This document shows positions 37,421 to 53,009 of a DNA stretch of 64,000 nucleotides, piece after piece (the stretch's first letter is position 1; each line of letters begins with the position of its first letter). The notes beneath the pieces were generated by a model. It was not told the origin of the DNA. It worked only from the letters and a program-made list of their open reading frames with translations, and did not search any database. The translations under genes were made by a program, and so were the position numbers. The DNA lies in assembly GCF_900215485.1 (NCBI RefSeq), contig NZ_OCMZ01000002.1, positions 1,364,001-1,428,000 on the forward strand. The letters run 5' to 3'. Source of the stretch: Nitrosovibrio sp. Nv4 (GTDB taxonomy: Bacteria > Pseudomonadota > Gammaproteobacteria > Burkholderiales > Nitrosomonadaceae).

Positions 37421-38425
37421 ATGGCAACTTTCGTGGATTTGTTTTGTGGAGGCGGATTCGGGGCCAGGGGGGCGGTTCAAGGAGGAGGCGTTCCACTATT
37501 GGGATTGGATGCGTGGGATTTGGCCACTAAGACTTACGAGGCCAACTTTCCGTCGGCGGATGTAATCACTGATTTCATTGAAAACGTCGACGCCGCCGCG
37601 CTGGGTCGACGGTATCGTCCGGACGTGCTCGTGACGTCTCCCGAGTGCACCTCGCACTCAATTGCACGCGGCGCCAAGCCAGGGTTGGAAAGCAGTCGTG
37701 AAACTGCGATTGGCATTGTTCCGTGGGTGGAGTCGATGCACCCTCGATGGGTCATTGTCGAGAACGTCAACCGGATGAAAAAGTGGGACCGACACAACGA
37801 GCTCGTCGCGACGATTGAGGGGCTGGGCTATACGGTCAGTGATCTTTTCCTCAATGCTGCCGATTTCGGGGCCGCCCAAGCGCGGAAGCGCATGTTTCTT
37901 GTCTGTGACAAGCAAGGTTCAAAAGTTTCGCGGGAACAGCTATTGGCATTCGGAAGCGATCGGCCCCTGACGGCCAACGATATTATCGATTGGGAGACTC
38001 CGTATCCGTCCAGTCCACTACGCAAGCCGGGAAGAGCGAAGGCCACACTGGAGCGGGCGGACCGGGCTATCGCCGCATCGGGCCGGAATGTCCCATTCAT
38101 CATCGTCTATTACGGATCAGACTACGCTGGCGGCTGGCAAACGCTGGACGTTCCACTGCGCACCGTGACCACCGTAGATCGGTTCGGGCTTGTAACCTGG
38201 CGAAAGCGCGAGCCCTACTTGAGGATGCTTCAACCCAACGAATTGCTCAAGGCGATGGGCGGCGGCGACGAACATCTGTTACCTCATGGTACCCGCCGCG
38301 AAAAGGTCAAGCTTTGCGGAAATGGCGTTTGCTCGGAGGTCATGGCTGCCATCTTCAAGTGGATCAGCGTGGCTCAGACACATCCCCGAGGAAGGGCGAT
38401 GCGACAACGCCGACCCAATGATTGA
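37421..38425 (+). CDS. DNA (cytosine-5-)-methyltransferase
   Basis: Modification enzyme of 334 residues that makes 5-methylcytosine. Motif I MATFVDLFCGGGFGARGAV at the very start, motif IV with the catalytic Cys in VTSPECTSHSIARG (about residue 73; PEC in place of the usual PCQ), motif VI VIVENVNRM (about 113), and motif VIII GAAQARKRMFLV (about 145). Motifs IX-X follow at TVTTVDRFGLVT and PNELLKAMG. No strong Shine-Dalgarno precedes the ATG. It overlaps the AspBHI-like nuclease by 8 bases, so methylase and nuclease are made together. It converges with vsr, whose product repairs T:G mismatches at methylated cytosines. Confidence 0.92.
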   Translation: MATFVDLFCGGGFGARGAVQGGGVPLLGLDAWDLATKTYEANFPSADVITDFIENVDAAALGRRYRPDVLVTSPECTSHSIARGAKPGLESSRETAIGIVPWVESMHPRWVIVENVNRMKKWDRHNELVATIEGLGYTVSDLFLNAADFGAAQARKRMFLVCDKQGSKVSREQLLAFGSDRPLTANDIIDWETPYPSSPLRKPGRAKATLERADRAIAASGRNVPFIIVYYGSDYAGGWQTLDVPLRTVTTVDRFGLVTWRKREPYLRMLQPNELLKAMGGGDEHLLPHGTRREKVKLCGNGVCSEVMAAIFKWISVAQTHPRGRAMRQRRPND

Positions 38426-39575
38426 AAAGGATTTGGACTCGGCTGATCTTTGTGTGGATGAGGTGTACGGCGGCTCCCGGAGGGGCAACTCTTCCGACGA
38501 TCCGCTGCCAAAGTTGCTTGGCGTGGATAACGGAGCTGGGTTTCGGCACCTCGGGAAACGGCCGGCGGTGGCGACTCTCAGGCTCCTTGTCCTGAAAACC
38601 AGCTTTTCGGATGTGAACTGGCCTGACGCGCTCGACCGTGAGAATGGGATCTTTGTCTACTACGGAGACAAGCGCGGCCCCGGGGATCTTCACGCGACGC
38701 CGCGGCAAGGGAACCTGATGCTCCGGAATCTTTTCGACGAAGCTCACCAATGCCAGCGGAGCTCTTCCTTTCCTCCGATCCTTCTTTTCGGCAATACGGG
38801 CACATATCGAGACGTCCGGTTTCTCGGACTCGCGGTACCTAGCGCGACAGGCATGGGTGCAGACGATGACCTCGTGGCCATATGGCGGACGACAGAGGAT
38901 GGTGTTCGATTTCAGAACTACAAGGCGACGTTCACCATACTCGATATCCCGGTCGTCTCCAGGGCATGGATTAAGGACATCCAGAACGGTAACGCAGTGT
39001 CCTCGCTCCATGTGCCGAAGGCATGGCTCGACTGGGTCTGCGGCAGGAAGTACACGCCACTCAAGTCCGTTTCCGTAAACGCTGTGCGCTCAAAGCGGCA
39101 GCAGATTCCCGACACCCCCGAACTGGCTGCGTACGTGAGGACGGTCTACGAGCATTACAAGGAAGATCCATACGCATTCGAGCGGTGCGCTATGGAGTTG
39201 GCTCGGCTTTTCATGCCGGCAATTCAACACTGGGAGTTGACGCGGCCATGGAGAGATGGGGGAAGGGACGCCTTGGGCACCTATCGCATAGGATATGGGG
39301 CTGGCGCGATCGATGTGGAATTCGCGATGGAGGCCAAGTGCTACGGCCCGGATGTGGGGGTAGGAGTCAAGCCTCTGTCCAGACTGATATCGCGCCTGAG
39401 ACATCGTCAGTTTGGCATCTTGGTCACGACTTCCTATCTTGATTCGCAGGCATACATGGAGCTCGTGGACGACACCCATCCGGTCGTCGTCATATCGGCA
39501 AGGGACATGTCCGTGAAGCTCAGGGAGAGGTTCGGCAGCCTCGAGAACATCAAGCTCTGGCTGCAACGGATCTAG
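38418..39575 (+). CDS. Restriction endonuclease, AspBHI-like N-domain plus Mrr-like catalytic domain
   Basis: 385 residues from ATG 38418, overlapping the methylase stop. The N-terminal half (about 40-180) has the AspBHI-type motif DVNWPDALDRENGIFVYYGD followed by GDLHATPRQGNLMLRNLF, a fold related to SRA domains that read modified cytosine. The C-terminal half carries a PD-(D/E)XK centre of Mrr type: WRDGGRDALGTYRIGY (Asp near 300), FAMEAKCYGP (Glu-x-Lys near 320) and RLRHRQFGILVTTSYLDSQA. Known relatives cut methylated DNA; pairing with a 5mC methylase is therefore odd. Either it reads the unmodified site, or its site differs from the methylase's. Confidence 0.75.
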   Translation: MIEKDLDSADLCVDEVYGGSRRGNSSDDPLPKLLGVDNGAGFRHLGKRPAVATLRLLVLKTSFSDVNWPDALDRENGIFVYYGDKRGPGDLHATPRQGNLMLRNLFDEAHQCQRSSSFPPILLFGNTGTYRDVRFLGLAVPSATGMGADDDLVAIWRTTEDGVRFQNYKATFTILDIPVVSRAWIKDIQNGNAVSSLHVPKAWLDWVCGRKYTPLKSVSVNAVRSKRQQIPDTPELAAYVRTVYEHYKEDPYAFERCAMELARLFMPAIQHWELTRPWRDGGRDALGTYRIGYGAGAIDVEFAMEAKCYGPDVGVGVKPLSRLISRLRHRQFGILVTTSYLDSQAYMELVDDTHPVVVISARDMSVKLRERFGSLENIKLWLQRI

Positions 39576-39617: not shown

Positions 39618-40082
39618 CTAATGGGGGAGAAGTTCCGGGATTTCGCCGAAGGGCGCATCGCCCTCAATCCATTCGGACAAAGATTGGGCGAGATCCGTGA
39701 CAGCCTCGGTCGACTTGCCTTTGGTGGCACATTCCCACACAACCAGAACGCGCCATCCCGCTTCCTTGAGTGCTTCGATAGCCCGTGTGTCACGCTCGAC
39801 ATTGCCGCTCAATTTGGCATGCCAGAACGCTGCGTTAGTCGTGGGCGATGTGGCGAAACCACAACCCGCGTGGCGGTGCCAGAAGCATCCATGGACGAAA
39901 ATCGCAACCTTGTGACCCGGCAGGACCACGTCGGGCACACCTGGAAGGTCGCGCCTGTGCAACCTGAAACGGTAGCTTGCAGCGAACAGAATTTTCCGCA
40001 CGAGCATTTCCGGCTTCGTGTTCTTCGCTCGGATGCCGGACATCATGCGTCGCCGGGTCTCTTTGTCGACAACGTCCACCAA
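39618..40082 (-). CDS. vsr: Very short patch repair endonuclease Vsr
   Basis: Nicks 5' of the T in T:G mismatches left by 5-methylcytosine deamination. 154 residues: DKETRRRMMSGIRAKNTKPE at the N-terminus, catalytic Asp in LPGVPDVVLPGHKVAIFVHG, the zinc/Cys-His set HGCFWHRHAGC, and WRVLVVWECA. Start is TTG 40082 or GTG 40079; AAGGAG lies 7-10 bases upstream. It is the last gene of the six-gene island operon, 11 bp after the AIPR gene, and converges with the methylase-nuclease pair it is expected to serve. Confidence 0.95.
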   Translation of the reverse strand: MVDVVDKETRRRMMSGIRAKNTKPEMLVRKILFAASYRFRLHRRDLPGVPDVVLPGHKVAIFVHGCFWHRHAGCGFATSPTTNAAFWHAKLSGNVERDTRAIEALKEAGWRVLVVWECATKGKSTEAVTDLAQSLSEWIEGDAPFGEIPELLPH

Positions 40083-40093
40083 GAATATTCTCC

Positions 40094-41863
40094 TTAGAGC
40101 AGCTCGGGGAGATCGTCGGCCGGCATTGTGAAGGATGCCCCAAGGACAGAGTCACGGCATTCCGGCTTCTTCGCCCATTCCGATACCATTCGGCCTCCGG
40201 CCGTCTGGTGCAGGACATTGCTGACCTCTTTTGCCCAACGAGCAATCTGCGCGCAGAATTCCGGGGAGAGAGCCTGCCGCGACCAAATCCGGTCGAATTC
40301 GATTCGCTCGCCAAGCCTGTCGGCGAGCACGGCCACGACATAGGCGGCAATGTTCGCCTGGAATGCTTGAAACATTGGCCGGACAATTTTCTGAGCCCCC
40401 TTGAAGATAATCGCCTTGGCGATCATCGCCTTGTACCAAGTTACATCCGGAAGCATTGCTGTTTCTCCGTCAGGGGTCGACAGCATAGCCATGAAGCGTT
40501 CGAAGTTCTTTTGCGAGCCCAGGCTTACCAAGTCCGGTCTGCGATCCCATGCGTTGATATACTTCGCCAAGTCCGTCTTCGTGATCTTCCTCGCCGGAGG
40601 CATTGCGTCTTTGAGTTTACGCAGCTTTGCGGGTGTCGTTCCTTCACGGGCAAGCATGGTGCTGTAGCTGCCCGATGCCCGTTCATAAAACCATCCGCTG
40701 ACTCCGTCGGGACAATAAACGGTCAACGACAGTTTTTCCACATCTACGTGGAAGGGCTTGTTTGCCGACAAATCAGATTGCTTAATCGCGTTTTGCGTAT
40801 TGGCGAAGCGCGAGATGTCCGAAACCAGCGCCTCCTCTTTGGCTGAGTCCTGCACTCGCATGACGATGATCTTGGCGGGCACCCTGACGGGTCCCAAGTC
40901 CACTTCAGGGAACTTCTTCTTGGTGAAGTACATAGATGCGGTCGTCTGGCCACCATTGACGATTTGCAGTCCCTTGAGCCACGCGATCCCCACCGAGCCA
41001 TCTCCTGGTTTACCCAGACGCATTTCGTCGGCCACGATCACGATTCCATTATTGTAGGCCATGAATCGCTCAGGCGCCGATCGCAAGGTGGTTTGAATGC
41101 CGGCATTAATCCCCTTGCCCTTGACGCTAAGGAAGGAGCGGACGTTGGCTTCCAAAAGCCGCGCACCGAACTTCTCGTAGAGCAGCCGCAGCGCCTCGCC
41201 GGGTATGGCTGTCAGCGCGTAGTCGTAATCGTCGCTTTCGCCCGGCACAAAGACGCAGGGCAAGGGACCGCCGGAGACCTCGTTGAAATCGACGACTACT
41301 TCGTCGCGCGGCTTGCCCTCGGACCAATGCCGATGAAGCCGCTCGATGTCCATGACTTCGAGGCGCACGGCCTTGCCGCCGATGTCCCGTGTCTTGAAGC
41401 TCTTGGACTTGGCGACCTTGTCAGTGATGACATAGACGCGGATTTGCTCCAAGTCGTTGTAGATGCCTTGCAGCGTTTCCGCCAGCGAGCGTACGTCGCT
41501 CGAAGGATCGAGCTTCGGCGCCATCTTGCCTTCCGCACAAAGTGTCAGAAAGCGTAGGCACTGCTCCACCGCGGTCTTGGTTTCCGAGTCGGGAACGGGC
41601 GTCGGAACATTGACGCCCTCGTAAAGGCTGACGAACAAATCGAGCTGGTCACTCTCATCGGATACGGAATAGCCGCTGAGTCTCAGATTTGCGTTGCCTA
41701 CCTTGCCCTCGAAATGGCATTCGACCGGCTCGAACGTCATGCCGATCTCCGACATGTGCTCCATCACTATCCCGGCGAACACCAATTCTTCATAGAGCGC
41801 GCCCTCTCTCATTTGCGACCGCACGGCGGTCTGCGTTTCGCGCAGGAATTCTGGCAAGTCCAT
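40094..41863 (-). CDS. AIPR family protein (abortive-infection phage resistance)
   Basis: 589-residue protein of the AIPR family, named after lactococcal abortive-infection proteins and often found in restriction-linked operons. The family core is seen at about residues 255-370: VRSFLSVKGKGINAGIQTTL, FMAYNNGIVIVADEM, LKGLQIVNGGQTTASMYFTK, and SDISRFANTQNAIKQSDLSA. An N-terminal domain (about 10-200) with VRVYVITDKVAKSK-like strands resembles nuclease-fold regions, but no catalytic set can be claimed. It begins 3 bp after the PD-(D/E)XK gene and is followed by vsr. Its biochemical role is unknown. Confidence 0.9.
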   Translation of the reverse strand: MDLPEFLRETQTAVRSQMREGALYEELVFAGIVMEHMSEIGMTFEPVECHFEGKVGNANLRLSGYSVSDESDQLDLFVSLYEGVNVPTPVPDSETKTAVEQCLRFLTLCAEGKMAPKLDPSSDVRSLAETLQGIYNDLEQIRVYVITDKVAKSKSFKTRDIGGKAVRLEVMDIERLHRHWSEGKPRDEVVVDFNEVSGGPLPCVFVPGESDDYDYALTAIPGEALRLLYEKFGARLLEANVRSFLSVKGKGINAGIQTTLRSAPERFMAYNNGIVIVADEMRLGKPGDGSVGIAWLKGLQIVNGGQTTASMYFTKKKFPEVDLGPVRVPAKIIVMRVQDSAKEEALVSDISRFANTQNAIKQSDLSANKPFHVDVEKLSLTVYCPDGVSGWFYERASGSYSTMLAREGTTPAKLRKLKDAMPPARKITKTDLAKYINAWDRRPDLVSLGSQKNFERFMAMLSTPDGETAMLPDVTWYKAMIAKAIIFKGAQKIVRPMFQAFQANIAAYVVAVLADRLGERIEFDRIWSRQALSPEFCAQIARWAKEVSNVLHQTAGGRMVSEWAKKPECRDSVLGASFTMPADDLPELL

Positions 41864-41866
41864 ACT

Positions 41867-42877
41867 TTATATCACTCCCGTTTTTTTCAATGCTGTAGCC
41901 ACGTCGACGCGGTGGCCAACGACCTTGTCAAGATCGATGCCATACGCAGCCCCTGTGATGCCGAAAGGAACACCGCCGACGGTGAAGCGCGGGAATCCAT
42001 CGCCGACCTCGATCACGAGCGTGTCCACTAACGCGAAGCGTCGAGGATAGTGGTTGGCGTGGGCGTCGAAATATCCAGCGGCCACCAAACGGTCGTCGAG
42101 CGCGCTAGCGGCCCCAGGATCGGCCTTGGCTGCAAGCCTCGCGGCATCGACAAAGTCGGGCAGGCCCAGTCCGCTTTCGGTCTGGCGCAATCGCACGCCG
42201 ACGACAAAGAGCGGTTGGCGGACAGAGTCGTCGAGCTGCTCAAGCGACCCGATGCGCGCGGGGAAACCCGCGGACGACAGCGTCGATTTGACTTCGAGCG
42301 CGCCAGTCCCGAGCTCGAAGTCTTGGGCGCCATCCAAGGGGCCGAGCCACCCTTCGGTGGCTGCCGTTGCGGAAATACCCGCTTCGATAATTTGCAGAAG
42401 CGTCGCTAGCTCTCCAACCAAACCGATCTCGGCTTCGGGACTCAATATTTGGCTTCCTTTGCGCATGAACTCCTGCCAAGCCCCCACGCGCCCGACGAAA
42501 ACCCGTAGCAGCTTGGCGACATCGGCCCCTGCCGCCACGGCGCCGTCCAACGCGCCCGTCACGTTGCAGACCATATCCGTGAACAGCTCAGCGTTTCCTG
42601 CGGCCTTGCGTGTCAAGGCGAGCCAAAGCATGCCCCTGTCTTCGGGATTCGCGCGTTCTATGGCGAAGCCTTGCCCCTCCGGCAGCTTGTCGGCGGCCGC
42701 CAAGCGCTCCGCCGGGAATCCCACCAACACCGCCTCGGCATTGTCGGGGGCACGCCGGCCCGCGCACAATTCGAGCGGACCTGTGGGCGTCACTGAGATG
42801 GTTTGCCAGCCCATGTCCGGGCCGTCGCCGGATAGCGACGACCATGCCATCAAAAACTCATCACTCAGTCGGGCCAT
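41867..42877 (-). CDS. PD-(D/E)XK motif protein (DUF4420-like)
   Basis: Predicted nuclease subunit of 336 residues. The nuclease core is in the middle: EIGLVGELATLLQIIEAG (about residues 150-167), then GWLGPLDGAQDFELGTGALE, where Asp and the Glu-Val-Lys of GALEVKSTLSS form the D-ExK site, at about 185-205. The family always travels with Z1 and MORC-type ATPases. ATG 42877 has AGGA close by; an in-frame ATG at 42901 would add 8 residues. Both starts lie inside the Z1 gene, so translation is coupled. Confidence 0.85.
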   Translation of the reverse strand: MARLSDEFLMAWSSLSGDGPDMGWQTISVTPTGPLELCAGRRAPDNAEAVLVGFPAERLAAADKLPEGQGFAIERANPEDRGMLWLALTRKAAGNAELFTDMVCNVTGALDGAVAAGADVAKLLRVFVGRVGAWQEFMRKGSQILSPEAEIGLVGELATLLQIIEAGISATAATEGWLGPLDGAQDFELGTGALEVKSTLSSAGFPARIGSLEQLDDSVRQPLFVVGVRLRQTESGLGLPDFVDAARLAAKADPGAASALDDRLVAAGYFDAHANHYPRRFALVDTLVIEVGDGFPRFTVGGVPFGITGAAYGIDLDKVVGHRVDVATALKKTGVI

Positions 42878-45755
42878 ATTCCTGAGTCCAGTAGAGGACA
42901 TTCACTTCATATTCCACGCTAATTCCGCTGTTGCTGGCTGGAAAGGCGATGGCGAAGGCCATGATGGGCTTGTCCCACCCAGACACGATTTGTGACTTCG
43001 GCTTGCCTGCATATGGGGCGAGTGGATAAAGAAGCAGCAAACCGCGATCCACCGCGCCGCCAAGCTCGCCGCGGGCCATGCGCATACCTTTTCCGCTTGG
43101 CACCGATGGCATGGTGACGCGTCCTCGTGCCGGGTCGGGTTTCCAGGCCGCTTGGGTGATTTCGAGAGCCTCGCGCCACGCATCGTCATCTAAATCGATC
43201 CCCTCGTCGGCGGGATCGGTCAGCACTCCGATGGCGAAACTAGCCGGGTCTCTCTGAGCAGGTGATTCGTGATCGTCGGGCGTGCGCATCGGGAAGGACT
43301 CGATGCGGACGCCTCCCGTGAATTCATAAGGATTGCTCTCGTCGCTGCCTTCGGCCAACAGGGACACGCTCCAAAGATCCAACTGACCTATCTCGTTCAT
43401 CTTGCGGATGAATTCCGCGAGCACCGGAGCTTTGGTGCTGGTCGCGTTGGGGTGAGTCGCATAGGCGCCCAAGAATGCAAGCACCTTCGAAGCGTCTACA
43501 TCTGTCCACAGCCGCGAACGCGGCCATGAGTCGGCTTTGCCGTTACGCTCGAATCTTTGGCCGTGGACCGTAGGTTGTCCAAGGGATGCGATCAGATCGT
43601 CCGTCGCAGAGAGGTTCGCTTCTTGCGTCCTGGCGTCGCGGTGGAACAGGATAGTTTGGGGGCGCGTTCCGCTGTAGGTCAAGGACAGGGTATGCGCGTT
43701 GCGCATCTTCAAGGGCGACGTGACCGTAAGCACCTCGTGCGATATCACCTTGAGGCCATAATCTTCTGGCGTAAGATTCGCGCTGGCCATGTAGTCAAAT
43801 TCCTCCCGCAGTTCCTCGGAAGCGTCAGCGATGTGGCCGAACCAACGCACCAAGTCGGGCGAGGTGTAGAGGCGACAGATATCCAGATATCCGGGGCGAT
43901 AGCCGAACCATCGGCCCATTTGCATCAGCGTGTCGTACATCTTCGTGGTGCGTACAAAGTAGCTCACGCAGAGCCCTTCGAGCGTCAGCCCCCGCGCCAG
44001 CTTGTCGCCACCGATGGCGATGACCTTGAGTGTCGAGCCTGGGGTAGCGTAGTCCAAAGCGTCCTTGGCCGTGCCATTGATCGAACGCACCTCGATGTCT
44101 TCGAGGACATCGGGAAGCGCCGCCTGCACCTCATCCCATGTCGGCAATGCTGCAGGCCGCTCTTCGTCGGGAGACAGCTCAGAGACCTTGGCGCTGGTCG
44201 GAGCGAAGTCCAGCTCCCATAGCTCTTTCATCTGAGTCAGCAGACCGTCGGCTTCGATGCCTCTGCAGATTTTCTGGCGCATGCTGCGCACCGAATCCTC
44301 GACCTGGAGCCGTACATGGTCCTGCACTGCCACCAAGCGGGTGACGTGGATCAGCATCGAGCTGTGCGCTGCCCCTTGGCCGCGTAGTTCACGCACCGCG
44401 CAAGCAAGGACGAAGGCGCAGATCGCCTCGCGCAAAGAGGGCGGTGCCATCTCCTGCCCGTTGTAGACCGGAATGTGCGTCTTTTTGTGCTTTGGCGGCA
44501 TCCAACCTGAGTCGGTCTTGGGATCGTATTGATCGCTAATGGGGCGAGAAAGGGGAAGTTCGCCCTTTCGGCCATCCTTGGTCATCCTTCCAAAGAGGCG
44601 GGCAGGGCCGACATAGTTCGACGGCGCGCCTAGGTTGATGATGAAGGAGCGCGGGAAGAGGTCAGGGCCCTCCTTCGTGGTGGTTCCCTTATGGTGGATG
44701 AAGATATTGGCAAAGGGCGTGGCGGTGTACCCTACATACGCCTTTCGAGTGAATGCATGCAGGAGCTGTCGAATGAGGCTGTTGATTGTTTTGGGTTGGT
44801 GCTCCTCGTCGGGAGCGCCGTCCTCATCGAACAGTTGCTCACCGGTGTCGACGGAGGCGTTGTCCGCCTCGTCGTCGATCATCAGTAACGGCAGCTTGGT
44901 GACGACCTTCCGGCCATCTTCGGTGGCATCGAACACGCGCGACTGAATCCAATGCAGGAGGGCGGTAAGCACCGTTTTTTGCTTCTTGACCACGAAGAGC
45001 CATGGGCGTTCTTCTGGCGAAATGCCGTGGAAATGCTTGGCGATGGCCTTGTTGAAGTCGCCGTTGTCCGCGCGCGTGGTTGCGGAGTTCGTTTTCAGGT
45101 CCTCGCCGAACTCGGCCACTCCGATGGGCAAGCCAGGGTCGCGGTTCGCCGTTGTTTCATAGCCCAAGAAGCCCTCTTCGAGGCGCATTTGAGTTTGGGA
45201 GCGCAGATTGTTGTGCGTGCCTGCCAGCACGATGATGATCTTGTAGCCGGCATCCGCCGCCTTGCAGATCAGGCCCGAGTAGTTGCTGGTCTTGCCTGAT
45301 TGGACATGGCCGACGACGAGCCCTCGGCGATCCCATGGGTCTGTCCGATGCGGGTCTTCGAGCAGCGCCAAGATGTTGTCAGTTGCGTCGTCGAGGCCAT
45401 CCACGACCTTATCGGAAAGCTTGGCTTCGAGGTAGTCGCGGTAGCGACGCCAATAGTGCCAATCTTTCTTGCGAGCGGCATTGAGCCAATGGATATGGCC
45501 GGCATCGTCTTTGAGCGTCGTGGCCTTGCCGATCCAGTGACTGAATCGCTGAATGAGCGTGGAAACCGCCAACGGCTGGTCCACGGTGGAGGTGGCGTCG
45601 GTCTCGAACATCTCCGCGGCTCGTGCCACTTTCTCGGCGATGTAGGCGGCCGTAACTTTCGACTTTTCCTTCTCCGCTTTCACCAACCGCTGTGCGGTGG
45701 CGATCACGTTCTCGAGCAGTTCCAATTGGGCTGCCGCAGTTTCTGTGGGGATCAC
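42861..45755 (-). CDS. Z1-domain superfamily-II ATPase/helicase
   Basis: 964 residues starting at GTG 45755 in a GTGA overlap with the MORC-like gene. Walker A VVGHVQSGKTSNYSG (149-156 core), Walker B LLMIDDEADNAS (about 305), the TAT motif VGYTATPFANIFI (about 355), and the helicase C-half motifs GGDKLARGLTLEGL and MGRWFGYRPGYLDICRLYT (about 610-650). This is the Z1 family of restriction-linked SF-II ATPases. It probably moves along or remodels DNA for the neighbouring nuclease. The C-terminal third (about 720-964) has no recognised domain. Confidence 0.92.
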   Translation of the reverse strand: MIPTETAAAQLELLENVIATAQRLVKAEKEKSKVTAAYIAEKVARAAEMFETDATSTVDQPLAVSTLIQRFSHWIGKATTLKDDAGHIHWLNAARKKDWHYWRRYRDYLEAKLSDKVVDGLDDATDNILALLEDPHRTDPWDRRGLVVGHVQSGKTSNYSGLICKAADAGYKIIIVLAGTHNNLRSQTQMRLEEGFLGYETTANRDPGLPIGVAEFGEDLKTNSATTRADNGDFNKAIAKHFHGISPEERPWLFVVKKQKTVLTALLHWIQSRVFDATEDGRKVVTKLPLLMIDDEADNASVDTGEQLFDEDGAPDEEHQPKTINSLIRQLLHAFTRKAYVGYTATPFANIFIHHKGTTTKEGPDLFPRSFIINLGAPSNYVGPARLFGRMTKDGRKGELPLSRPISDQYDPKTDSGWMPPKHKKTHIPVYNGQEMAPPSLREAICAFVLACAVRELRGQGAAHSSMLIHVTRLVAVQDHVRLQVEDSVRSMRQKICRGIEADGLLTQMKELWELDFAPTSAKVSELSPDEERPAALPTWDEVQAALPDVLEDIEVRSINGTAKDALDYATPGSTLKVIAIGGDKLARGLTLEGLCVSYFVRTTKMYDTLMQMGRWFGYRPGYLDICRLYTSPDLVRWFGHIADASEELREEFDYMASANLTPEDYGLKVISHEVLTVTSPLKMRNAHTLSLTYSGTRPQTILFHRDARTQEANLSATDDLIASLGQPTVHGQRFERNGKADSWPRSRLWTDVDASKVLAFLGAYATHPNATSTKAPVLAEFIRKMNEIGQLDLWSVSLLAEGSDESNPYEFTGGVRIESFPMRTPDDHESPAQRDPASFAIGVLTDPADEGIDLDDDAWREALEITQAAWKPDPARGRVTMPSVPSGKGMRMARGELGGAVDRGLLLLYPLAPYAGKPKSQIVSGWDKPIMAFAIAFPASNSGISVEYEVNVLYWTQEYGPTE

Positions 45756-47245
45756 GGTTTGCTCCCAAGCCGCGCCACGAGCGCGGGAAATTTGTGAAAG
45801 GGTTCGGTACGCAGTAGTGCCTTGCGGGCCTCGTCTACGCTTAGATTCTTTCGCTGGATTAGGTCATCGAAGAGAACGGTCGCGATCTCAATCACCGCCT
45901 CGTTGGGCTCACCGTCGAAACCGGTGCGCGGCGTCTCCTTGTTCTCCGCGGTGTCGAGCCAGATGCGCTGGACCGGGACCGTCTCCTCGATCACCCGAAT
46001 CATTGCTTTGATCAAGGGTTGGAGATCGCCTGCGTTGTCGAGGACGGCTGCGACGGAGGGATGTTTCTCTTCGATCCGATACCGCATACCGGCCTTGATC
46101 CGCTCTACACGCCAAGCTTGTTCAACGGGCCTGTCGCCTTGGCTCGGCATCGGGGTTGCGCGATAGGCGAACACCCGGCGAGCGCGCTCGCGCGTGTTTT
46201 CGGCGAACTGGGTGAGCCAGGGTTTGAGCGACACCGGGGACCGCGCCGTGGACTTCCTGACGTCGATCTTCCACTCGGCGTCGGCCGTGTTGGGGATGTC
46301 GATGCGGATGCGCGCCAAGCGATGCGCTTCTTCTCGATTCCATACGCGCGAATTGCCCAGACCGAGCCAGCCTCCTGCGACCAAGAGCCTCTCGTTGCGG
46401 TAGACGTAAAAACCCTGCTGGGCAGTCCATCCCGCTGGGCCTCCGTTGGCGTCGAACTCAGCCGCCGTCAGCTTATCGCGGTGTGGCAAGACATGGCATT
46501 GGATCTCGACGGTTCCATATTCGGCATGGTGCTTCGCGATCGGAGGCGCCCATGCCTTGGCTATGTGCCCTGTCATGAACGGGTCCCAAGGCTTGAGGGC
46601 GCGACCGTTCAAAAACAGTTTCAGGCGCGCTAGCGGACCTTGGAGAAAGCGATGGAAGACCATCGCCAAATGCGCTTCGACATCGTCGATCAAAGCCAAG
46701 AAGTCGTCCGACTTGTAGCCATCAGTAACAATGCGGTCGAGTGTCTCCCACAACACGAGAGTCCCTGCCTTCTTACCCTTCAAGTTCGAGATAAACGACT
46801 TTGAGCCAGGGGCAGTGCCTTCGAAGAGAAGCCATCCACTGTCTGGGTTGGCGGCCAGTTCGGTCAAGTCCCACCGCAGGCAGCTTTGGACCTCGTCCTT
46901 GACGGTGGCTACCGTGAGGCGGCGGCATTGCGAGAAGGATGCGGTTTTGAGCCCCATGCAGAAGCGCCCTAGGTCGTGCGCTTCGCGGGCGACCAGCGGG
47001 TTCTTGTCGCCAAGCCGCATCGCGCTTTCAAGCTCGGCGTCGCTCATGCCGCGCCCGTTATCGAGGACCGAAATGCGGCTATTCTGCCCAGCCCAGGAAA
47101 AATCGATACTAACTTCGGTCGCGCCAGCGGAAATGCTGTTGTCCACGATATCAGCGAGCGCCGTTGCGGTGGAATAGCCGAGGCCGCGAAGCGATTCAAG
47201 CATCGACACGGCCCGCGGAGGCGCGTTTCGCGTCTTTGGGGTCAT
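45752..47245 (-). CDS. MORC/MutL-type GHKL ATPase
   Basis: 497 residues with a GHKL ATP-binding module: N-box TATALADIVDNSISAGATEV (Asp-x2-Asn, about residues 29-48), G1 ISVLDNGRGMSDAELE (about 58-73), G2 DLGRFCMGLKTASFSQCRRL (about 92-111), then an S5-like second half with DVRKSTARSPVSLK. Prokaryotic MORC and paraMORC proteins of this build are known to group with Z1 ATPases and nucleases in restriction systems. ATG 47245 overlaps the stop of the ankyrin-sigma gene (ATGA). It likely clamps or loops DNA as a dimer. Confidence 0.9.
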   Translation of the reverse strand: MTPKTRNAPPRAVSMLESLRGLGYSTATALADIVDNSISAGATEVSIDFSWAGQNSRISVLDNGRGMSDAELESAMRLGDKNPLVAREAHDLGRFCMGLKTASFSQCRRLTVATVKDEVQSCLRWDLTELAANPDSGWLLFEGTAPGSKSFISNLKGKKAGTLVLWETLDRIVTDGYKSDDFLALIDDVEAHLAMVFHRFLQGPLARLKLFLNGRALKPWDPFMTGHIAKAWAPPIAKHHAEYGTVEIQCHVLPHRDKLTAAEFDANGGPAGWTAQQGFYVYRNERLLVAGGWLGLGNSRVWNREEAHRLARIRIDIPNTADAEWKIDVRKSTARSPVSLKPWLTQFAENTRERARRVFAYRATPMPSQGDRPVEQAWRVERIKAGMRYRIEEKHPSVAAVLDNAGDLQPLIKAMIRVIEETVPVQRIWLDTAENKETPRTGFDGEPNEAVIEIATVLFDDLIQRKNLSVDEARKALLRTEPFHKFPALVARLGSKP

Positions 47246-49815
47246 CTCCAATAGCCCTTCCCTAGCGAGAACTCGAACCCCAACGCAAGCAGTTTGTGGA
47301 CCAATTTGCGGTAACGTCTATCCGGCGCGTTGGTGAGGTTAACCCATATTCTCCCCGAAGGCCCGTCGCGGTCGTCGTCGACGGGAATGCCCCAGTCTGC
47401 GACTTCTGACAGGAGCCTGTCGGTGCCCGACGATCGCGCGGGTGGTGGGGCGCTCAGGCTCGAGGGAGCCGTCTTGGTCGCGGCAGGCCGCCGCATCATT
47501 TTAGCTTCCGATGGTTGCTCAGCGCTGTCTTCTTCCTCTTTGCCTTCTGGGTAAAGCGGGCCACCGAAGACTGCGCGCGCGAACGCATCCATTCGACTTG
47601 GGTGCTTTAATTTTCGGAGCGCGGCGGCCTCTATCTGGCGAACGCGCTCCCTCGTGACTCCGTATTGGCAGCCAATTTCGTCGAGCGTCAACGCCTCTTC
47701 GACGCCGATGCCGAAGCGCAGACGAAGAGTCTGCTCTTCCCTGGGCTTTAGCGTGGACAGTAGCTTGTCAATTGTCTCGAGTAATTCGGACTTGAACGCG
47801 ACGTCCATGGGATCTGTCGAGGCGAAATCGGATCGGACCTCGACGGCGATCAGCTCGTCGATGGGCAGTTCATGGATCGGCAATGGCTCAGGAGTGACGC
47901 GTTGAAGCTCGGCCACTTTGTGGACGGCCATGTTCAAACGAGCCGCGATCTCATGGAGCTCGGGCGGACACCCTGTCTCCGATTCAAACGCCTGAGTTTC
48001 TCGGGAAAGGCGCTGGGTCTTTTCATAGACATGGACCGGAACACGAACCGTCCTACATTTGTCGGCGAGGTACCGTCCAATTTGCTGTCGTATCCACCAA
48101 GTGGCGTAGGTGGAGAACTTGAAACCGCGGCGCCAATCGAAGCGTTCGACGGCCTTCAGCAGGCCGATGTTTCCTTCTTGTGCCAAGTCGTCCAAAGGTT
48201 CGCCGCTGTATAGATACTTTTTGGCGAGATGGAAAACGAGCTTTAGGTTGGCGACGGCCATTCGTTCGCGGGCGCGCTGGTGGGCCTTCATGGCGCTCGC
48301 GTATTGATTGGCCGAGCCGGTGTTGCCGTGGTCTTCGATATCGGCCAGCTCCAGAAGGAAGCGCCGATTCAGTCGAAGCGACGACAGCGTTTCACGGATG
48401 GCTCGCCATCCCGCTCCCTGCTGGACAGAGCCAACCGGAAGGCTCGCGAGCTGGTCCAGCGCATCCAAGAAGTCCGAGGCTTGGTCGCCAAGCGGGCGAG
48501 TCTCGAATTGGAGGGCTGGATCGTGCTCTGCTGCTTCGTCAGGCGAGTCCGATGCGGCGGTGTCGGCATCGTTTTCGCCTTCGAGAGTGGGTTCAAGCTT
48601 TGGCTGGACGTCGGCGGGGCCAAGCGACAACCAACTCAAAGGCTGTTGTCCGGCCCTAACCAAGTGCCCAGCGGCCAACGTAAGGTCGATGCCACGCGGC
48701 CAAGTCGCCAAAGCGTCGAGTGCTCTTTCCAACTCGCTTTCCATGGCTTGGCTCAGCGCGACCTCTTCTTCCGCGGAAATGAGCCTTTCTTGCTGGAATT
48801 CTTTTTGGTAAATGCGCAGAGGCTCTGTTCGATTGGAGACGAGGCTGTCGATGGAGGCCAAGGCATTGGCCACGATCTCTTCTTCGTCCGGCGATTCCTC
48901 TGGTTTGACGTAGACCTCGAAGTTTTCGGTGGCGCTGGCACCGACGTATTCGAATCGTTCATCGACTTCGGCGCCGAGGTCGTTGATTATCATGCTCAGC
49001 TGCGCTTCGGCCTCGGGGTTTGCGGATCGGTCATCGTTGACCGACAGCGCCTCGACCCACATGTACGGCACGCTGCCTTCGCGGACGGCTCGAAGCATTA
49101 GCAGGCGGAGCCGTCCTAGAACTTCGGCGTCGTCTGTGCGCGCCAAGGGCTGCGATCTTTCTGGCAGGTAAGCGTCGATATCATCCCAGTCAGCTGAAGA
49201 GTCGACGGGTTCATATTCCGTGATGGCTGCCTGAATTGCGCTGACGGCTTGGGCGATCGACGAATCGGCATCGGGCGGAGGCCGGTCTTCCTCGGGCTCC
49301 CAACTGAACAAGTCAAAGTTTGGCGTGTTTTCTGGTTCGGTCGTTTCATCGACCGTGATTGGGGCCGCAGGGCGCGCCATGTCTGCTTCAGTCTCGCTTG
49401 CGCCGATCAGATACGCGGGGTGTTCCGAGGCTTGAACGCCCAAAGGTTCGATGGGTCCATCGGACAGTGGGGGCATGCCAAGGGCTTGGTGGCCCCAAGC
49501 TCCTATCGAGACTTTGACTGACTCGAGGATGGCGGCGGCCTCGTGTGCGCCTGCGGCAACCGCAATGGCAAGGGCCGTTTTTCCAGAGGGATCGAGCAGA
49601 CCGTCGTCAATTCCTGCATCGAGCAGCAGTTTGCAGATGACGGGCTTGTTTCGAGCTGCCGACAACATTAGAGGCGTCAAACCGTTTCGGTCGCGGGCGT
49701 TGAGATCGTCGCCTCGATCGATGTGAATCTGAATCGCGCTCTCGATCCCAGCCATGACGGCCATTCTTAAAAACCGGCTGAGAGGCAGCATGCCCGCGAC
49801 GCTCGTGTCGTTCAC
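47242..49815 (-). CDS. Ankyrin-repeat protein fused to a complete RpoD-like sigma factor
   Basis: 857 residues, first gene of the island operon, start GTG 49815 with GGGGGAG upstream. Residues 15-100 hold two or three ankyrin repeats (ARDRNGLTPLMLSAARNKPV; DPSGKTALAIAVAAGAHEAA). Residues 230-330 read as sigma region 1.1, 329-365 as 1.2 (TEPLRIYQKEFQQERLISAE), and 370-510 as a low-complexity non-conserved region. 514-600 are regions 2.1-2.4 and 3.0 (DDLAQEGNIGLLKAVERFDW; STYATWWIRQQIGRYLADKC), 610-665 region 3, and 682-745 region 4 (VTRERVRQIEAAALRKLKHP). In region 2.4 the -10 contact Gln is kept but the Thr (440 in E. coli) is Gly; the region 4.2 helix is almost unchanged. A novel tail (800-857) ends LLALGFEFSLGKGYWR. 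Either a true alternative sigma or a sigma-like promoter binder. Confidence 0.93.
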   Translation of the reverse strand: MNDTSVAGMLPLSRFLRMAVMAGIESAIQIHIDRGDDLNARDRNGLTPLMLSAARNKPVICKLLLDAGIDDGLLDPSGKTALAIAVAAGAHEAAAILESVKVSIGAWGHQALGMPPLSDGPIEPLGVQASEHPAYLIGASETEADMARPAAPITVDETTEPENTPNFDLFSWEPEEDRPPPDADSSIAQAVSAIQAAITEYEPVDSSADWDDIDAYLPERSQPLARTDDAEVLGRLRLLMLRAVREGSVPYMWVEALSVNDDRSANPEAEAQLSMIINDLGAEVDERFEYVGASATENFEVYVKPEESPDEEEIVANALASIDSLVSNRTEPLRIYQKEFQQERLISAEEEVALSQAMESELERALDALATWPRGIDLTLAAGHLVRAGQQPLSWLSLGPADVQPKLEPTLEGENDADTAASDSPDEAAEHDPALQFETRPLGDQASDFLDALDQLASLPVGSVQQGAGWRAIRETLSSLRLNRRFLLELADIEDHGNTGSANQYASAMKAHQRARERMAVANLKLVFHLAKKYLYSGEPLDDLAQEGNIGLLKAVERFDWRRGFKFSTYATWWIRQQIGRYLADKCRTVRVPVHVYEKTQRLSRETQAFESETGCPPELHEIAARLNMAVHKVAELQRVTPEPLPIHELPIDELIAVEVRSDFASTDPMDVAFKSELLETIDKLLSTLKPREEQTLRLRFGIGVEEALTLDEIGCQYGVTRERVRQIEAAALRKLKHPSRMDAFARAVFGGPLYPEGKEEEDSAEQPSEAKMMRRPAATKTAPSSLSAPPPARSSGTDRLLSEVADWGIPVDDDRDGPSGRIWVNLTNAPDRRYRKLVHKLLALGFEFSLGKGYWR

Positions 49816-50361: not shown

Positions 50362-50964
50362 ATGAAAATCGGTTATGCGCGGGTAAGTACTCAAGAGCAG
50401 GATTTGGCTCTACAGCTCGATGCCTTGACTAAGGAAGGGTGCGAGAAAATATTTCAGGAAAAGGCTTCAGGAGCACAGCGGGACAGACCAGAGCTGAAAG
50501 CCGCCCTTTCCTACATGCGGAAAGGCGATACATTGGTCGTCTGGAAACTTGATCGGCTTGCCCGCTCCATGAAACAGCTTATTGAAACAATTGAATCGTT
50601 CCAGGACGAGGGTATAGGGTTGAAATCCATACAGGACCCCATCGATACCAGTTCGCCGAGCGGAAGACTCGTCTTCCATATTTTCGCGGCATTGGCCGAA
50701 TTTGAACGTGGCGTTATTCGTGAGCGAACGACTGCAGGGTTAAGAGCCGCCCGGGAACGTGGACGGGTTGGTGGCAGACCTCCCTCACTTTCAGCCAAAG
50801 ACCTCCAAGTAGCGAAGGCTATGCTGAAAGATTCCAATATCACTGTGGCTACGGTTGCCAGTCGATTAAACGTGGCCGCATCCACGTTATACCGCCATAT
50901 TCCCCATGCGAGAAGTGCAAGTCTAGAGGCAGAGGAAGGCAGGGTTATTGTAACGACAGAATGA
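50362..50964 (+). CDS. Serine recombinase (resolvase/invertase)
   Basis: 200-residue small serine recombinase. The catalytic Ser is in GYARVSTQEQDLALQLDAL (residue 9), with the partner Arg residues in KLDRLARSMKQL (about 65-76) and AALAEFERGVIRERTTAGL (about 112-130). A C-terminal helix-turn-helix (VATVASRLNVAASTLYRHIP) binds DNA. Complete and likely active. It is divergent from the ankyrin-sigma operon and may have moved the island or act on inverted or direct sites near 49.9-50.3 kb, though no certain crossover site is seen. Confidence 0.93.
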   Translation: MKIGYARVSTQEQDLALQLDALTKEGCEKIFQEKASGAQRDRPELKAALSYMRKGDTLVVWKLDRLARSMKQLIETIESFQDEGIGLKSIQDPIDTSSPSGRLVFHIFAALAEFERGVIRERTTAGLRAARERGRVGGRPPSLSAKDLQVAKAMLKDSNITVATVASRLNVAASTLYRHIPHARSASLEAEEGRVIVTTE

Positions 50965-51129: not shown

Positions 51130-52146
51130 ATGGAAAATGAAGATGGCAGGCTCTCCCTTGACCTCGATCTGACGTGTCTGGGGTACCGGGGCGAAACGCT
51201 TCCGTTTCGAATCAGCCTTCGTGCCGATGCGCTACCGCAACTGATCGATGCCGCTGCTCATGGCGACCGTATCTACGAGCTTTTTTCGATATGCAGGCAC
51301 GGCGATATCAAACGACACCTTTGGGTACGGACTATAGAAGCAGCTGAGAGGATAACCCGTCGTTACCAATGGATAAGCGAAGAAGCTGGGTGGCCGAAAA
51401 ACGAATGCCACTACCCCAAATGGGATAATGCCTTCTGTTTAACCTGGGACGAACAACCAGAGGAATGTGCCTGGCATTGGGGGAAACAGCGGCCGGAAAT
51501 CAAGGAATTCGTTGACTATTGGTTTGATCGCGTTCTGGCAGCAAAAAAATTATTGCGACAGTCGGAAGATATATTTACTCAGCGCGAAATCAGCCTCATA
51601 GACAGCGGCAAGCACGACTACGAATACGAAACAGAGACGCCCTTTGTTCTAACGCCACCGGGGACCCGATATATCCCGGTAAAGGATCAATATCCTGAAT
51701 GGTTTTATGAAGATTTGGCTCACATGCTGGGGCAGTATGAGATCGGCTCCGTATCCTATCGCTCAACGGATCTCAGAACGTTTCGCCTTATGTGTGCAGA
51801 ACAATTAAAGCGATGCGCCGACACGAACCAAGACCCGAAAACGGTATTTCCGGTAAGCGTTATGAACCTCATAATGTCAAATAAGGACTACTTTCCGCGA
51901 GCGAGCCGTTGGGGTGGATACGCGCTTTATTCGGAGGAAGGGCTGGGTTATGGAGATTTGTTAATCGACATGGATCGGCAGGTCGGTCGTTCACCCAAGG
52001 TTTTGTATGAGCAGTATTATCGCTGCTTCCCTGATCAGTGGCCTCTTTACATCCTGACCGACGAGGAGATGGGGGAAATCAGGGGTTACAAACGTAAGGT
52101 CCTGAGGGAAGCATATCTGTTTCTATATAAAAAGCTGCCCCGATAA
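51130..52146 (+). CDS. Hypothetical protein, 338 residues
   Basis: Not recognised. Soluble, rich in Trp, Tyr, Glu and Arg, no signal peptide. Features: DLDLTCLGYRGETLPFRISL at the start, repeated aromatic stretches (WPKNECHYPKWDNAFCLTWD, about 88-107), VLTPPGTRYIPVKDQYPEWF (about 174) and a basic C-terminus. A coherent frame of this length with even composition supports a gene. It follows the recombinase on the same strand and precedes another unknown gene; it may be part of the same mobile cargo. Confidence 0.65.
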   Translation: MENEDGRLSLDLDLTCLGYRGETLPFRISLRADALPQLIDAAAHGDRIYELFSICRHGDIKRHLWVRTIEAAERITRRYQWISEEAGWPKNECHYPKWDNAFCLTWDEQPEECAWHWGKQRPEIKEFVDYWFDRVLAAKKLLRQSEDIFTQREISLIDSGKHDYEYETETPFVLTPPGTRYIPVKDQYPEWFYEDLAHMLGQYEIGSVSYRSTDLRTFRLMCAEQLKRCADTNQDPKTVFPVSVMNLIMSNKDYFPRASRWGGYALYSEEGLGYGDLLIDMDRQVGRSPKVLYEQYYRCFPDQWPLYILTDEEMGEIRGYKRKVLREAYLFLYKKLPR

Positions 52147-52288: not shown

Positions 52289-52450
52289 ATGAGAAAACGA
52301 GCGCTAAACCGTCTTTTCCGTTTCACCCCATTTGCAGAATTGCCGCGACGGCGACGGCGGGACCTCTACGTCAGCCTTCGCTGGAAGATCACGCAAGACG
52401 CCGGTGAGTATGGTGGGAAATTAATTCACGACGCACCTCGTGCTCGATGA
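52289..52450 (+). pseudogene. Possible 5' part of the frameshifted downstream gene
   Basis: A 53-codon reading from ATG 52289 (MRKRALNRLFRFTPFAELPR, ending GGKLIHDAPRAR) runs into a TGA at 52448. The next frame picks up LDEPGRPKLYKQSFDVYFLG at once. The amino-acid texture flows across the junction, which suggests one gene broken by a single-base indel near 52440. Confidence 0.45.
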
Positions 52451-53009
52451 GCCAGGCCGGCCTAAGCTATATAAGCAATCGTTCGACGTCTATTTTCTTG
52501 GAACCGATGAGGTCACCATCTGGAATGCCACGATCTTTACCACGAATTGCGAATTCTGGAACAAAACGAGGAGCATGGCCTCTGAGCGCGCTATTTCACT
52601 TCTCACGGAAGAGCAGCGAGAACAAGAGTGCGGATTGAAATTTGAAGGGCCATTTCACAAAGACGGCGAAAAATACTACAGAATGGCGGAACGAGAGCCG
52701 CGTCGCTATGACTGTTTCGGCGGGTTAATGCTGCGCGAATATCAAAGCAAAAGAGAGATGGAAATTATAGAAAATGAGCCGCCGGCAATTTATGAATCAT
52801 TCAAGACGGATCCCAGTTATGAATATGGGACCGGCTTGCGGGCGGTTGTCCTCGCGGACGAAATCAATCGGGAAGTGATCGATGCCACCATCGACAGATT
52901 TCGCGAAGTCGGCGAAGCGGACTGGCAAAGCGAACAACCGGTCCCAAGAGAAGTATTGCCGTTTGAAACCCAGGAAACGGCGCTGTCCAAAGTTAAATAT
53001 ACCATCTAG
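52440..53009 (+). CDS. Hypothetical protein, likely 3' part of a frameshifted gene
   Basis: 189 codons from GTG 52440. No domain recognised. Strands such as QSFDVYFLGTDEVTIWNATI, an acidic mid-part and ALADE-like VLADEINREVIDATIDRFRE are seen. The lack of a good start and the matching open text in the preceding frame (52289-52450) suggest the original product was about 240 residues. It lies about 290 bp after the other hypothetical gene on the same strand. Confidence 0.5.
   Translation: MLDEPGRPKLYKQSFDVYFLGTDEVTIWNATIFTTNCEFWNKTRSMASERAISLLTEEQREQECGLKFEGPFHKDGEKYYRMAEREPRRYDCFGGLMLREYQSKREMEIIENEPPAIYESFKTDPSYEYGTGLRAVVLADEINREVIDATIDRFREVGEADWQSEQPVPREVLPFETQETALSKVKYTI

What the first reader, a model, noticed from the sequence alone, without database searches (positions are those of the whole stretch)
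47242..49815. Ankyrin repeats fused to a full RpoD-like sigma factor at the head of a defence operon
Seen: ankyrin repeats (15-100), a region resembling sigma 1.1, then 1.2, 2.1-2.4, 3 and 4 in order, and a new C-terminal tail. The -35 helix of region 4.2 is nearly that of RpoD; in region 2.4 the Thr that reads the -12 pair is Gly. Known: sigma factors are not a standard part of restriction systems. Inference: the protein may restart host or defence transcription when a phage takes over sigma-70, act as a decoy for phage anti-sigma proteins, or guide the ATPase-nuclease set to promoters.
Basis: partly seen in the sequence, partly recalled or inferred. Interest (0 to 1): 0.95.

Follow-up and report, generated by a model that had tools for sequence, protein, structure and literature searches.

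The report
Defence-operon sigma factor with swappable body
The gene is the sigma-factor subunit (MzaA) of a known kind of bacterial anti-phage operon, and in several relatives the main part of this subunit has been re-copied from a housekeeping sigma factor, which suggests that the defence has to work on the cell's ordinary transcription machinery.

Summary

Across 75 MzaA proteins the core-clamp, melting and -35-reading residues are nearly invariant, so it should be a real sigma reading ordinary promoters. The Thr440-to-Gly site is variable (T32, S18, G16 of 75).

New here: MzaA is a chimera with an exchangeable body. In five independent groups regions 1.2-4.2 came from a housekeeping RpoD (four beside the RpoD of a host genus), under a constant Ank-linker-1.1 module that stays with the operon. 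A C5 methyltransferase accompanies 43 of 45 MzaA loci with enough flank.

Best mechanism (inferred, 0.4): MzaA holoenzyme carries the restriction machine to promoters, methylation marking self. Rivals: stand-in sigma; RNA-polymerase guard.

The parts
47242..49815 (-). MzaA: Ank repeats + linker + sigma 1.1-4.2 + ZorC1-like tail, 857 aa
   Evidence: PADLOC MzaA 6.6e-73; NCBIfam MzaA 488 bits, cut-off 800; Pfam
49525..49767 (-). Ankyrin repeats (residues 17-97)
   Evidence: Pfam Ank_2 7.5e-11
49156..49323 (-). MzaA linker (about residues 165-220) with near-invariant W172, D205, W210, L217, P218
   Evidence: column counts in 75 MzaA
48916..49128 (-). sigma region 1.1-like domain (about residues 230-300)
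   Evidence: alignment with own RpoD, model; approximate borders
48733..48822 (-). sigma region 1.2 (residues 332-361); start of the part that is swapped in relatives
   Evidence: Pfam; breakpoint in relatives
48058..48252 (-). sigma region 2 (residues 522-586), with the Thr440-equivalent Gly580 at 48076-48078
   Evidence: Pfam 4.2e-21
47602..47763 (-). sigma region 4 (residues 685-738) with the -35 helix
   Evidence: Pfam 9.8e-17
47245..47445 (-). ZorC1-like C-terminal domain (residues 791-857)
45752..47251 (-). MzaB, GHKL (MORC/MutL-type) ATPase; true start may lie 16 codons inside the ORF
   Evidence: PADLOC 1.4e-197; HATPase_c_3 5.7e-31; NCBIfam match starts at residue 17
41867..42901 (-). 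MzaD, DUF4420 PD-(D/E)XK protein
   Evidence: PADLOC 1.3e-53; DUF4420 6e-67
40094..41863 (-). MzaE, AIPR protein
   Evidence: PADLOC 6.2e-219; AIPR 1.3e-89
39618..40082 (-). Vsr-type endonuclease, last gene of the minus-strand run
   Evidence: Pfam Vsr 1e-28
38286..39575 (+). AspBHI-N/Mrr-type restriction endonuclease
   Evidence: RE_AspBHI_N 1.4e-60, Mrr_cat 4.1e-7
37421..38425 (+). Cytosine-5 DNA methyltransferase, presumed self mark
   Evidence: Pfam 1.5e-28; linkage in relatives

Best explanation
MzaA is a working sigma-70-type subunit that joins core RNA polymerase and reads ordinary housekeeping promoters. Its N-terminal module (Ank repeats, conserved linker, its own 1.1-like domain) ties that holoenzyme to the MzaBCDE machine (GHKL clamp ATPase, SF2-type helicase, PD-(D/E)XK protein, AIPR protein). 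The machine is thereby brought to promoters that are being opened, such as the strong early promoters of incoming phage DNA, and acts on DNA that lacks the mark of the linked C5 methyltransferase. Shown: chimera anatomy, conservation of sigma residues, repeated capture of the sigma body from housekeeping RpoD, linkage to methyltransferase and Vsr. Inferred: polymerase binding, a physical link of the N-module to MzaB-E, promoter targeting, methylation as the self mark.
For: Clamp, melting, -10 and -35 contact residues near-invariant in 75 MzaA; 4.2 HTH and region 2.3 are the best-kept parts in 67 older MzaA (0.75 and 0.73 of RpoD-invariant sites). Five independent captures of the body from RpoD. 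N-module identity follows MzaE (rho 0.85) and MzaB (0.80) while the captured bodies do not (-0.24, -0.13). C5 methyltransferase in 43 of 45 and Vsr in 41 of 45 MzaA loci with enough flank, against 51 methyltransferase places in 28 genomes of about 145 Mb. Some loci with the same core lack MzaA, so the sigma looks like an added targeting part (19 of 97).
Against: No contact between MzaA and MzaB-E or polymerase was tested. The N-module follows MzaC only weakly (rho 0.48), and MzaB less well for captured-versus-other pairs (0.55). 67 of 75 bodies are old, so host matching is not constantly renewed, and L056 sits in a host whose RpoD is not its nearest. Methylation as self mark rests on linkage alone. 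The sigma finger is poorly kept (0.17), though the host's RpoS is also low there (0.26).
Confidence: 0.4

Rival explanations
1. Stand-in sigma: MzaA keeps the defence operon and host genes transcribed when a phage disables or appropriates RpoD; the body stays RpoD-like so that it serves the same promoters, while surfaces seen by anti-sigma proteins may drift.
For: Same promoter-reading residues as RpoD. After capture, changes are frequent in 1.2 (51 of 161 positions against 5 of 128 between RpoDs) and 4.1 (43 of 155 against 8 of 124), rare in 2.1-2.4 (27 of 390 against 1 of 312) and 4.2 HTH (9 of 110 against 0 of 88). That anti-sigma proteins such as T4 AsiA bind region 4 is recalled.
Against: Many of the 4.1 changes seen are mild. 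It gives no reason for the Ank-linker module to evolve with MzaE and MzaB, nor for the tight operon.
Confidence: 0.28
2. Guard or integrated decoy: MzaA sits in real holoenzyme and senses phage proteins that attack sigma or polymerase; tampering releases MzaB-E. The body is refreshed from RpoD so that it keeps looking like the true target.
For: Repeated re-copying of the body from RpoD under a constant N-module is what an integrated decoy predicts; a guard inside holoenzyme also keeps the DNA-reading residues.
Against: Region 4.1, expected to be a target surface, changes faster than in RpoD after capture; a free decoy would not need the invariant DNA readers. No triggering phage protein is known to me.
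Confidence: 0.2
3. Ordinary regulator: MzaA is an alternative sigma with a private regulon that includes its own operon.
For: It is the first gene of the operon and belongs to the sigma-70 family.
Against: -35 readers are RpoD's in 75 of 75, Q437 75 of 75, H455 72 of 75: no private specificity is visible, and replacement by RpoD bodies would erase one. No strong promoter was seen upstream (9 of 12 matches at best on either strand).
Confidence: 0.08

Closest known systems
MZA (mzaABCDE) anti-phage system (Gao et al. 2020, recalled, not held; PADLOC and NCBIfam models)
   Same: Five genes in the same order, each matching its MZA model; Ank + sigma-70 MzaA.
   Different: All five fall below NCBIfam's equivalog cut-offs; a ZorC1-like tail on MzaA; Vsr, C5 methyltransferase and AspBHI-like endonuclease alongside.
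MORC-type restriction-modification operons, third type (Iyer et al. 2008, PMC2292703, passages)
   Same: MORC ATPase, SF2 helicase with the DThhQXuRhFG motif (window MzaC: DTLMQMGRWFG), RE-fold protein, AIPR, cytosine methylase, Vsr.
   Different: The word sigma does not occur in that paper's text.
Type II mza-like systems of Miller et al. 2022 (PMC9523054, passage)
   Same: AIPR and MORC-type proteins, mza-like architecture.
   Different: About 20% identity to mzaBCDE by that paper; mzaA in only a few of them.
Zorya ZorC1 C-terminus
   Same: Short C-terminal domain shared with the MzaA tail (window: profile positions 517-568 of 570, E 8.1e-5).
   Different: The rest of ZorC is absent; modest E-values; no solved fold match.
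Plant NLR immune receptors with integrated decoys (recalled)
   Same: A defence protein carrying a copy of a host protein that pathogens target; analogy only.
   Different: No homology; whether MzaA senses anything is untested.

Membership tests
MZA system | Five genes A-B-C-D-E in order, each matching its model | tested here: met
   (PADLOC 6.6e-73 to 2.3e-303)
MZA system | NCBIfam equivalog cut-offs for MzaA-E | tested here: not met
   488/800, 757/850, 1149/1500, 350/420, 936/1050 bits; hence MZA-type, outside NCBI's narrow group
MZA system | Protects against phages | not testable with these tools
   Recalled for another MZA operon only
Sigma-70 family factor | Regions 2, 3 and 4 with core and promoter contacts | tested here: met
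Sigma-70 family factor | Binds core polymerase and starts transcription | not testable with these tools
   Inferred from residues only
RpoD (housekeeping sigma) | RpoD equivalog cut-off (NF004208, 555 bits) | tested here: not met
   321.6 bits; the host has a separate RpoD, L002. Some captured relatives do pass it (e.g. L045 614.7 bits)
MORC-type RM operon (Iyer 2008, third type) | MORC + SF2 helicase with DThhQXuRhFG + RE-fold protein | tested here: met
   the RE-fold catalytic residues of MzaD were not checked
MORC-type RM operon (Iyer 2008, third type) | Methylase and Vsr nearby (frequent, not constant) | tested here: met
   relatives
Restriction-modification system | Methylation protects self from the operon | not testable with these tools
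   Only linkage shown
Integrated decoy / guard | Phage protein that acts on the sigma or polymerase part triggers the defence | not testable with these tools
   Only the repeated capture of the body is shown

The most novel reading that the evidence does not exclude
MzaA is a bacterial counterpart of the integrated-decoy immune receptors of plants: a constant sensor-adaptor (Ank, linker, 1.1-like domain) onto which the body of a housekeeping sigma factor is grafted again and again, so that the defence sits in real RNA polymerase at real promoters and fires when a phage tampers with sigma or polymerase.
Probability: 0.2. Interest if true: 0.9.

Novelty: new member of a known kind. Interest (0 to 1): 0.62.

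Why it matters
The papers I could search do not explain what the sigma factor of MZA does. The repeated replacement of its body by a housekeeping RpoD, while the Ank-linker module stays with the operon, is a strong and testable clue: the subunit seems to need a body that matches real transcription machinery. It points to a defence that acts through RNA polymerase at ordinary promoters and offers a clean domain-swap experiment (same N-module, different sigma bodies). It also ties MZA to a cytosine methyltransferase and Vsr, so that it looks like a transcription-linked restriction-modification system.

Tried and rejected
Thr440-to-Gly as a new -12 specificity of the family: rejected; the site is T32, S18, G16, A5, L2, H1, N1 of 75.

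Eroded sigma finger as a sign of lost initiation: dropped, because the host's RpoS keeps only 0.26 of the same sites.

RpoD paralogues of Burkholderiales as donors of the Cupriavidus body: five were added; L077 and L068 still group with the Cupriavidus housekeeping RpoDs (98/100).

Swap tests on regions 2.1-4.2 only: too little signal. L077 and L095 rejected RpoD monophyly at p 0.033 and 0.017; L057 did not (0.44); for the other six groups tried, RpoD came out as one side of a branch, which is against nesting on those columns. With regions 1.2-4.2 including the non-conserved region all five groups rejected it. The groups were named after the first tree had been seen, so the p-values are optimistic; these trees were quick ones with four outgroup rows.

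Tail domain: no solved relative by sequence (best E 0.31) or fold (no match with E <= 0.001). Linker region: nothing convincing in PDB sequences (best E 0.23), no match in plasmids. MzaA in phage records: 84 records match, none over 80% of the query; the 15 listed cover only the sigma part.

Limits of the sample: the genome scan kept the best 80 of 357 relatives, and 8 of 31 plasmid hits were fetched. Linkage was measured outwards from MzaB; MzaA-like N-modules elsewhere were sought only in the own genome and in plasmids. An even draw of 369 genomes of the class had MzaB in 3, the window's own included.

Rows dropped: L070 and ORFs under 600 aa were left out of the 75 MzaA; 30 of the 75 MzaA loci were left out of the methyltransferase count for lack of flank; L057's host genome is not held; two N-modules were too short for the N-module comparison (73 rows). 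L097 and L075 have the same coordinates and contig length and are probably one contig.
Full report
What is there. The gene named in the finding runs on the minus strand from 49815 to 47242 and encodes 857 residues. It starts a compact minus-strand run: 47242-49815, 45752-47251, 42861-45755, 41867-42901, 40094-41863 and 39618-40082. PADLOC gives MzaA 6.6e-73, MzaB 1.4e-197, MzaC 2.3e-303, MzaD 1.3e-53, MzaE 6.2e-219. The sixth gene is a Vsr-type endonuclease (1e-28). Convergent to it lie a cytosine-5 methyltransferase (37421-38425) and an AspBHI-N/Mrr endonuclease (38286-39575). This is an operon of the MZA kind, but all five Mza proteins fall below NCBIfam's equivalog cut-offs: a divergent relative.

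Is the sigma fusion new? No. NCBIfam's MzaA model already spans the Ank part (protein 12-761 against profile 2-724 of 726), and PMC9523054 calls mzaA a sigma factor (passage). MORC operons with a helicase, RE-fold nuclease, AIPR, cytosine methylase and Vsr were described in 2008 (PMC2292703, passages); the word sigma does not occur in that text. Two further papers only list mza among detected systems (PMC10740426, PMC12479173; passages). My searches (listings) showed no study of how MzaA works and none of the swap described below; bioRxiv and most subscription papers are not held. Gao et al. 2020, the source of MZA, is not held and is recalled.

Relatives. A scan with a MzaB alignment gave 80 genome loci, the best of 357, and 9 viral-contig loci; 8 plasmid loci were fetched. 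Of these 97, 75 have MzaA directly upstream of MzaB, 19 do not, and 3 are cut by an edge. For sequence work I used 75 MzaA: 74 loci with an ORF of at least 600 aa, plus the window.

Anatomy. Pfam finds Ank_2 in 71 of 75, sigma regions 2 and 4 in 75 of 75, region 3 in 63, region 1.2 in 54 and the non-conserved region of RpoD in 18. Between Ank and sigma lies a linker with W172 in 74 of 74 rows, W210 74/74, D205 73/74, L217 74/75 and P218 75/75. A C-terminal domain is present in 37 of 75 by a pattern rule and matches the end of ZorC1 in 14 of 15 tails scanned. AlphaFold models the domains well but not their arrangement (pLDDT 80, pTM 0.54); the best PDB matches are sigma chains of RNA polymerase, with low whole-chain TM-scores as expected for a loosely arranged model.

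It should be a working, promoter-reading sigma. In E. coli numbering, mapped through the host's own RpoD: clamp contacts D403 74/75, Q406 75/75, E407 72/75, N409 72/75; melting residues F427 75/75, Y430 65/75, W433 74/75, W434 75/75; Q437 75/75; R451 and P453 75/75; H455 72/75, E458 62/75; -35 readers R584, E585, R588, Q589 each 75/75. Which residue does which job is recalled. T440 is variable (T32, S18, G16, A5, L2, H1, N1); the window has G. Of sites invariant in 29 RpoDs (at most one exception), the 67 older MzaA keep 0.75 in the 4.2 HTH, 0.73 in 2.3, 0.66 in 2.2, 0.63 in 2.4, 0.52 in 4.1, 0.40 in 1.2 and 0.17 in the 3.2 finger. The finger loss is not special: the host's RpoS keeps 0.26 there, and 0.50 in the 4.2 HTH.

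The sigma body is exchangeable. A tree of regions 2.1-4.2 of 75 MzaA, 29 RpoD and one RpoS puts the RpoDs inside the MzaAs, and MzaA as one clade is rejected (151 log units, p-AU 3e-54). Compared with the host's own RpoD in 40-residue windows, MzaA of L077 (Cupriavidus), L095 (Nitrosospira), L052 (Limnohabitans) and L045 (Rhodanobacter) stays at 0-25% through the N-module, reaches 20-47% in the window before the junction, and 70-92% in the first window of region 1.2; beyond that it varies by region. On 518 columns of regions 1.2-4.2, L045 is sister to its own host's RpoD (99/94), L095 groups with the two Nitrosospira-type RpoDs (100/100), L077 and L068 with the Cupriavidus RpoDs (100/99), and L052, L056 and L098 with Limnohabitans RpoD (100/97); L057 (Azonexaceae, host genome not held) lies among betaproteobacterial RpoDs without a sure sister. 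For each group, holding the RpoDs together without it is rejected: p-AU 0.011 (L045), 5.5e-6 (L095), 4e-4 (L077+L068), 3e-4 (L052 group), 0.0013 (L057). On regions 2.1-4.2 alone the same test is weak or negative. Adding Burkholderiales RpoD paralogues does not change the Cupriavidus result.

The swaps are independent and leave the rest in place. In the N-module tree (73 rows) and the MzaB tree (74 rows) the captured label needs at least five changes, and one captured clade is rejected (p 1.4e-6 and 2.5e-125). Over all pairs, N-module identity follows MzaE (rho 0.85), MzaB (0.80) and MzaC (0.48). For captured-versus-other pairs the N-module still follows MzaE (0.85) and, less well, MzaB (0.55) and MzaC (0.25), while the sigma body follows none (MzaE -0.24, MzaB -0.13, MzaC -0.01). 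L095 is a clear example: its N-module is nearest those of L028, L065 and L064, its MzaB nearest L064, L065 and L090, but its body lies with Nitrosospira RpoD. The youngest capture seen, L077, is 87% identical to its host's rpoD in DNA over the body, with 57 of 212 four-fold sites different; it has no amino-acid change in the 186 positions counted in regions 2.1-3.2 and 4.2, but 10 of 33 in 1.2, 6 of 31 in 4.1 and 59 of 250 in the non-conserved region. Against simple host matching: 67 of 75 bodies are old, and L056 sits in a host (Limnobacter) whose RpoD is not its nearest.

Methylation partner. Among the 45 MzaA loci with enough flank, 43 have a C5 methyltransferase, 41 a Vsr and 40 both. In 28 host genomes there are 51 C5-methyltransferase places (some are pieces of one gene) in about 145 Mb by rounded sizes; in 11 of the 12 genomes with a single place, it lies within 10 kb of the MzaA match listed. 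In 5 of the 19 loci without MzaA the methyltransferase lies directly upstream of MzaB.

Interpretation. Three facts must be explained together: promoter-reading residues under strict constraint, repeated renewal of the body from a housekeeping RpoD, and a private N-module that evolves with the operon. A private-regulon sigma goes against the first two, a free decoy against the first. I favour a sigma that brings the Mza machine to promoters in real holoenzyme, with methylation as the self mark (0.40); a stand-in sigma (0.28) and a guard or integrated decoy inside holoenzyme (0.20) are close. That MzaA acts as a true sigma in holoenzyme, common to these three, I put at about 0.8; that the five groups of bodies were captured from RpoD, at about 0.9.

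Host. The window's own RpoD lies with that of Nitrosospira multiformis, so the genome (3.27 Mb, 3 contigs) is probably a Nitrosospira relative. Its MzaA is of the older, non-captured type, nearest that of Burkholderia peredens (84% over the sigma part).

Noticed in passing
window 37421-39575 (+): A C5 methyltransferase overlaps an endonuclease with an AspBHI-type N-domain; PADLOC calls the latter methyl-directed, an odd partner for a methyltransferase. The same pair recurs beside Mza operons in L009, L017, L046, L091 and L095.
   Followed up: partly
L067, L074, L079, L081, L087, L089 (Pseudomonas): Mza-like cores without MzaA have the C5 methyltransferase gene just upstream of MzaB, the place that MzaA holds elsewhere (5 of 19 by the strict distance rule).
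   Followed up: partly
L011 6546-8255; L013 5996-6799: Other genes hold the first place: a 569-aa protein that looks CHAT/caspase-like from its sequence (impression only) and a DUF3883 protein (annotation).
   Followed up: no
window 47245-47445 (-) and tails of 37 MzaA: A small C-terminal domain shared with ZorC1 of Zorya, predicted helix-strand-strand-helix-strand-strand, without a solved relative.
   Followed up: partly
L017 15388-17157: MzaE of the nearest relative (B. peredens) is split into two ORFs, so that copy may be broken.
   Followed up: no
window 50362-50964 (+): A resolvase-type serine recombinase stands just upstream of the operon; recombinase genes also lie near some relatives, e.g. 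L009 3585-4844.
   Followed up: no
window 53582-54151 (+): A 189-aa ORF that looks like the C-terminal half of a copper nitrite reductase (impression from the sequence, not tested).
   Followed up: no
window 26451-28289, 51130-52146, 52440-53009 (+): Three ORFs (612, 338, 189 aa) near the operon have no Pfam match at the thresholds used.
   Followed up: no
G016 (host of L077), G001, G003, G006: Several Burkholderiales hosts carry extra full-length RpoD-like genes apart from MzaA.
   Followed up: partly
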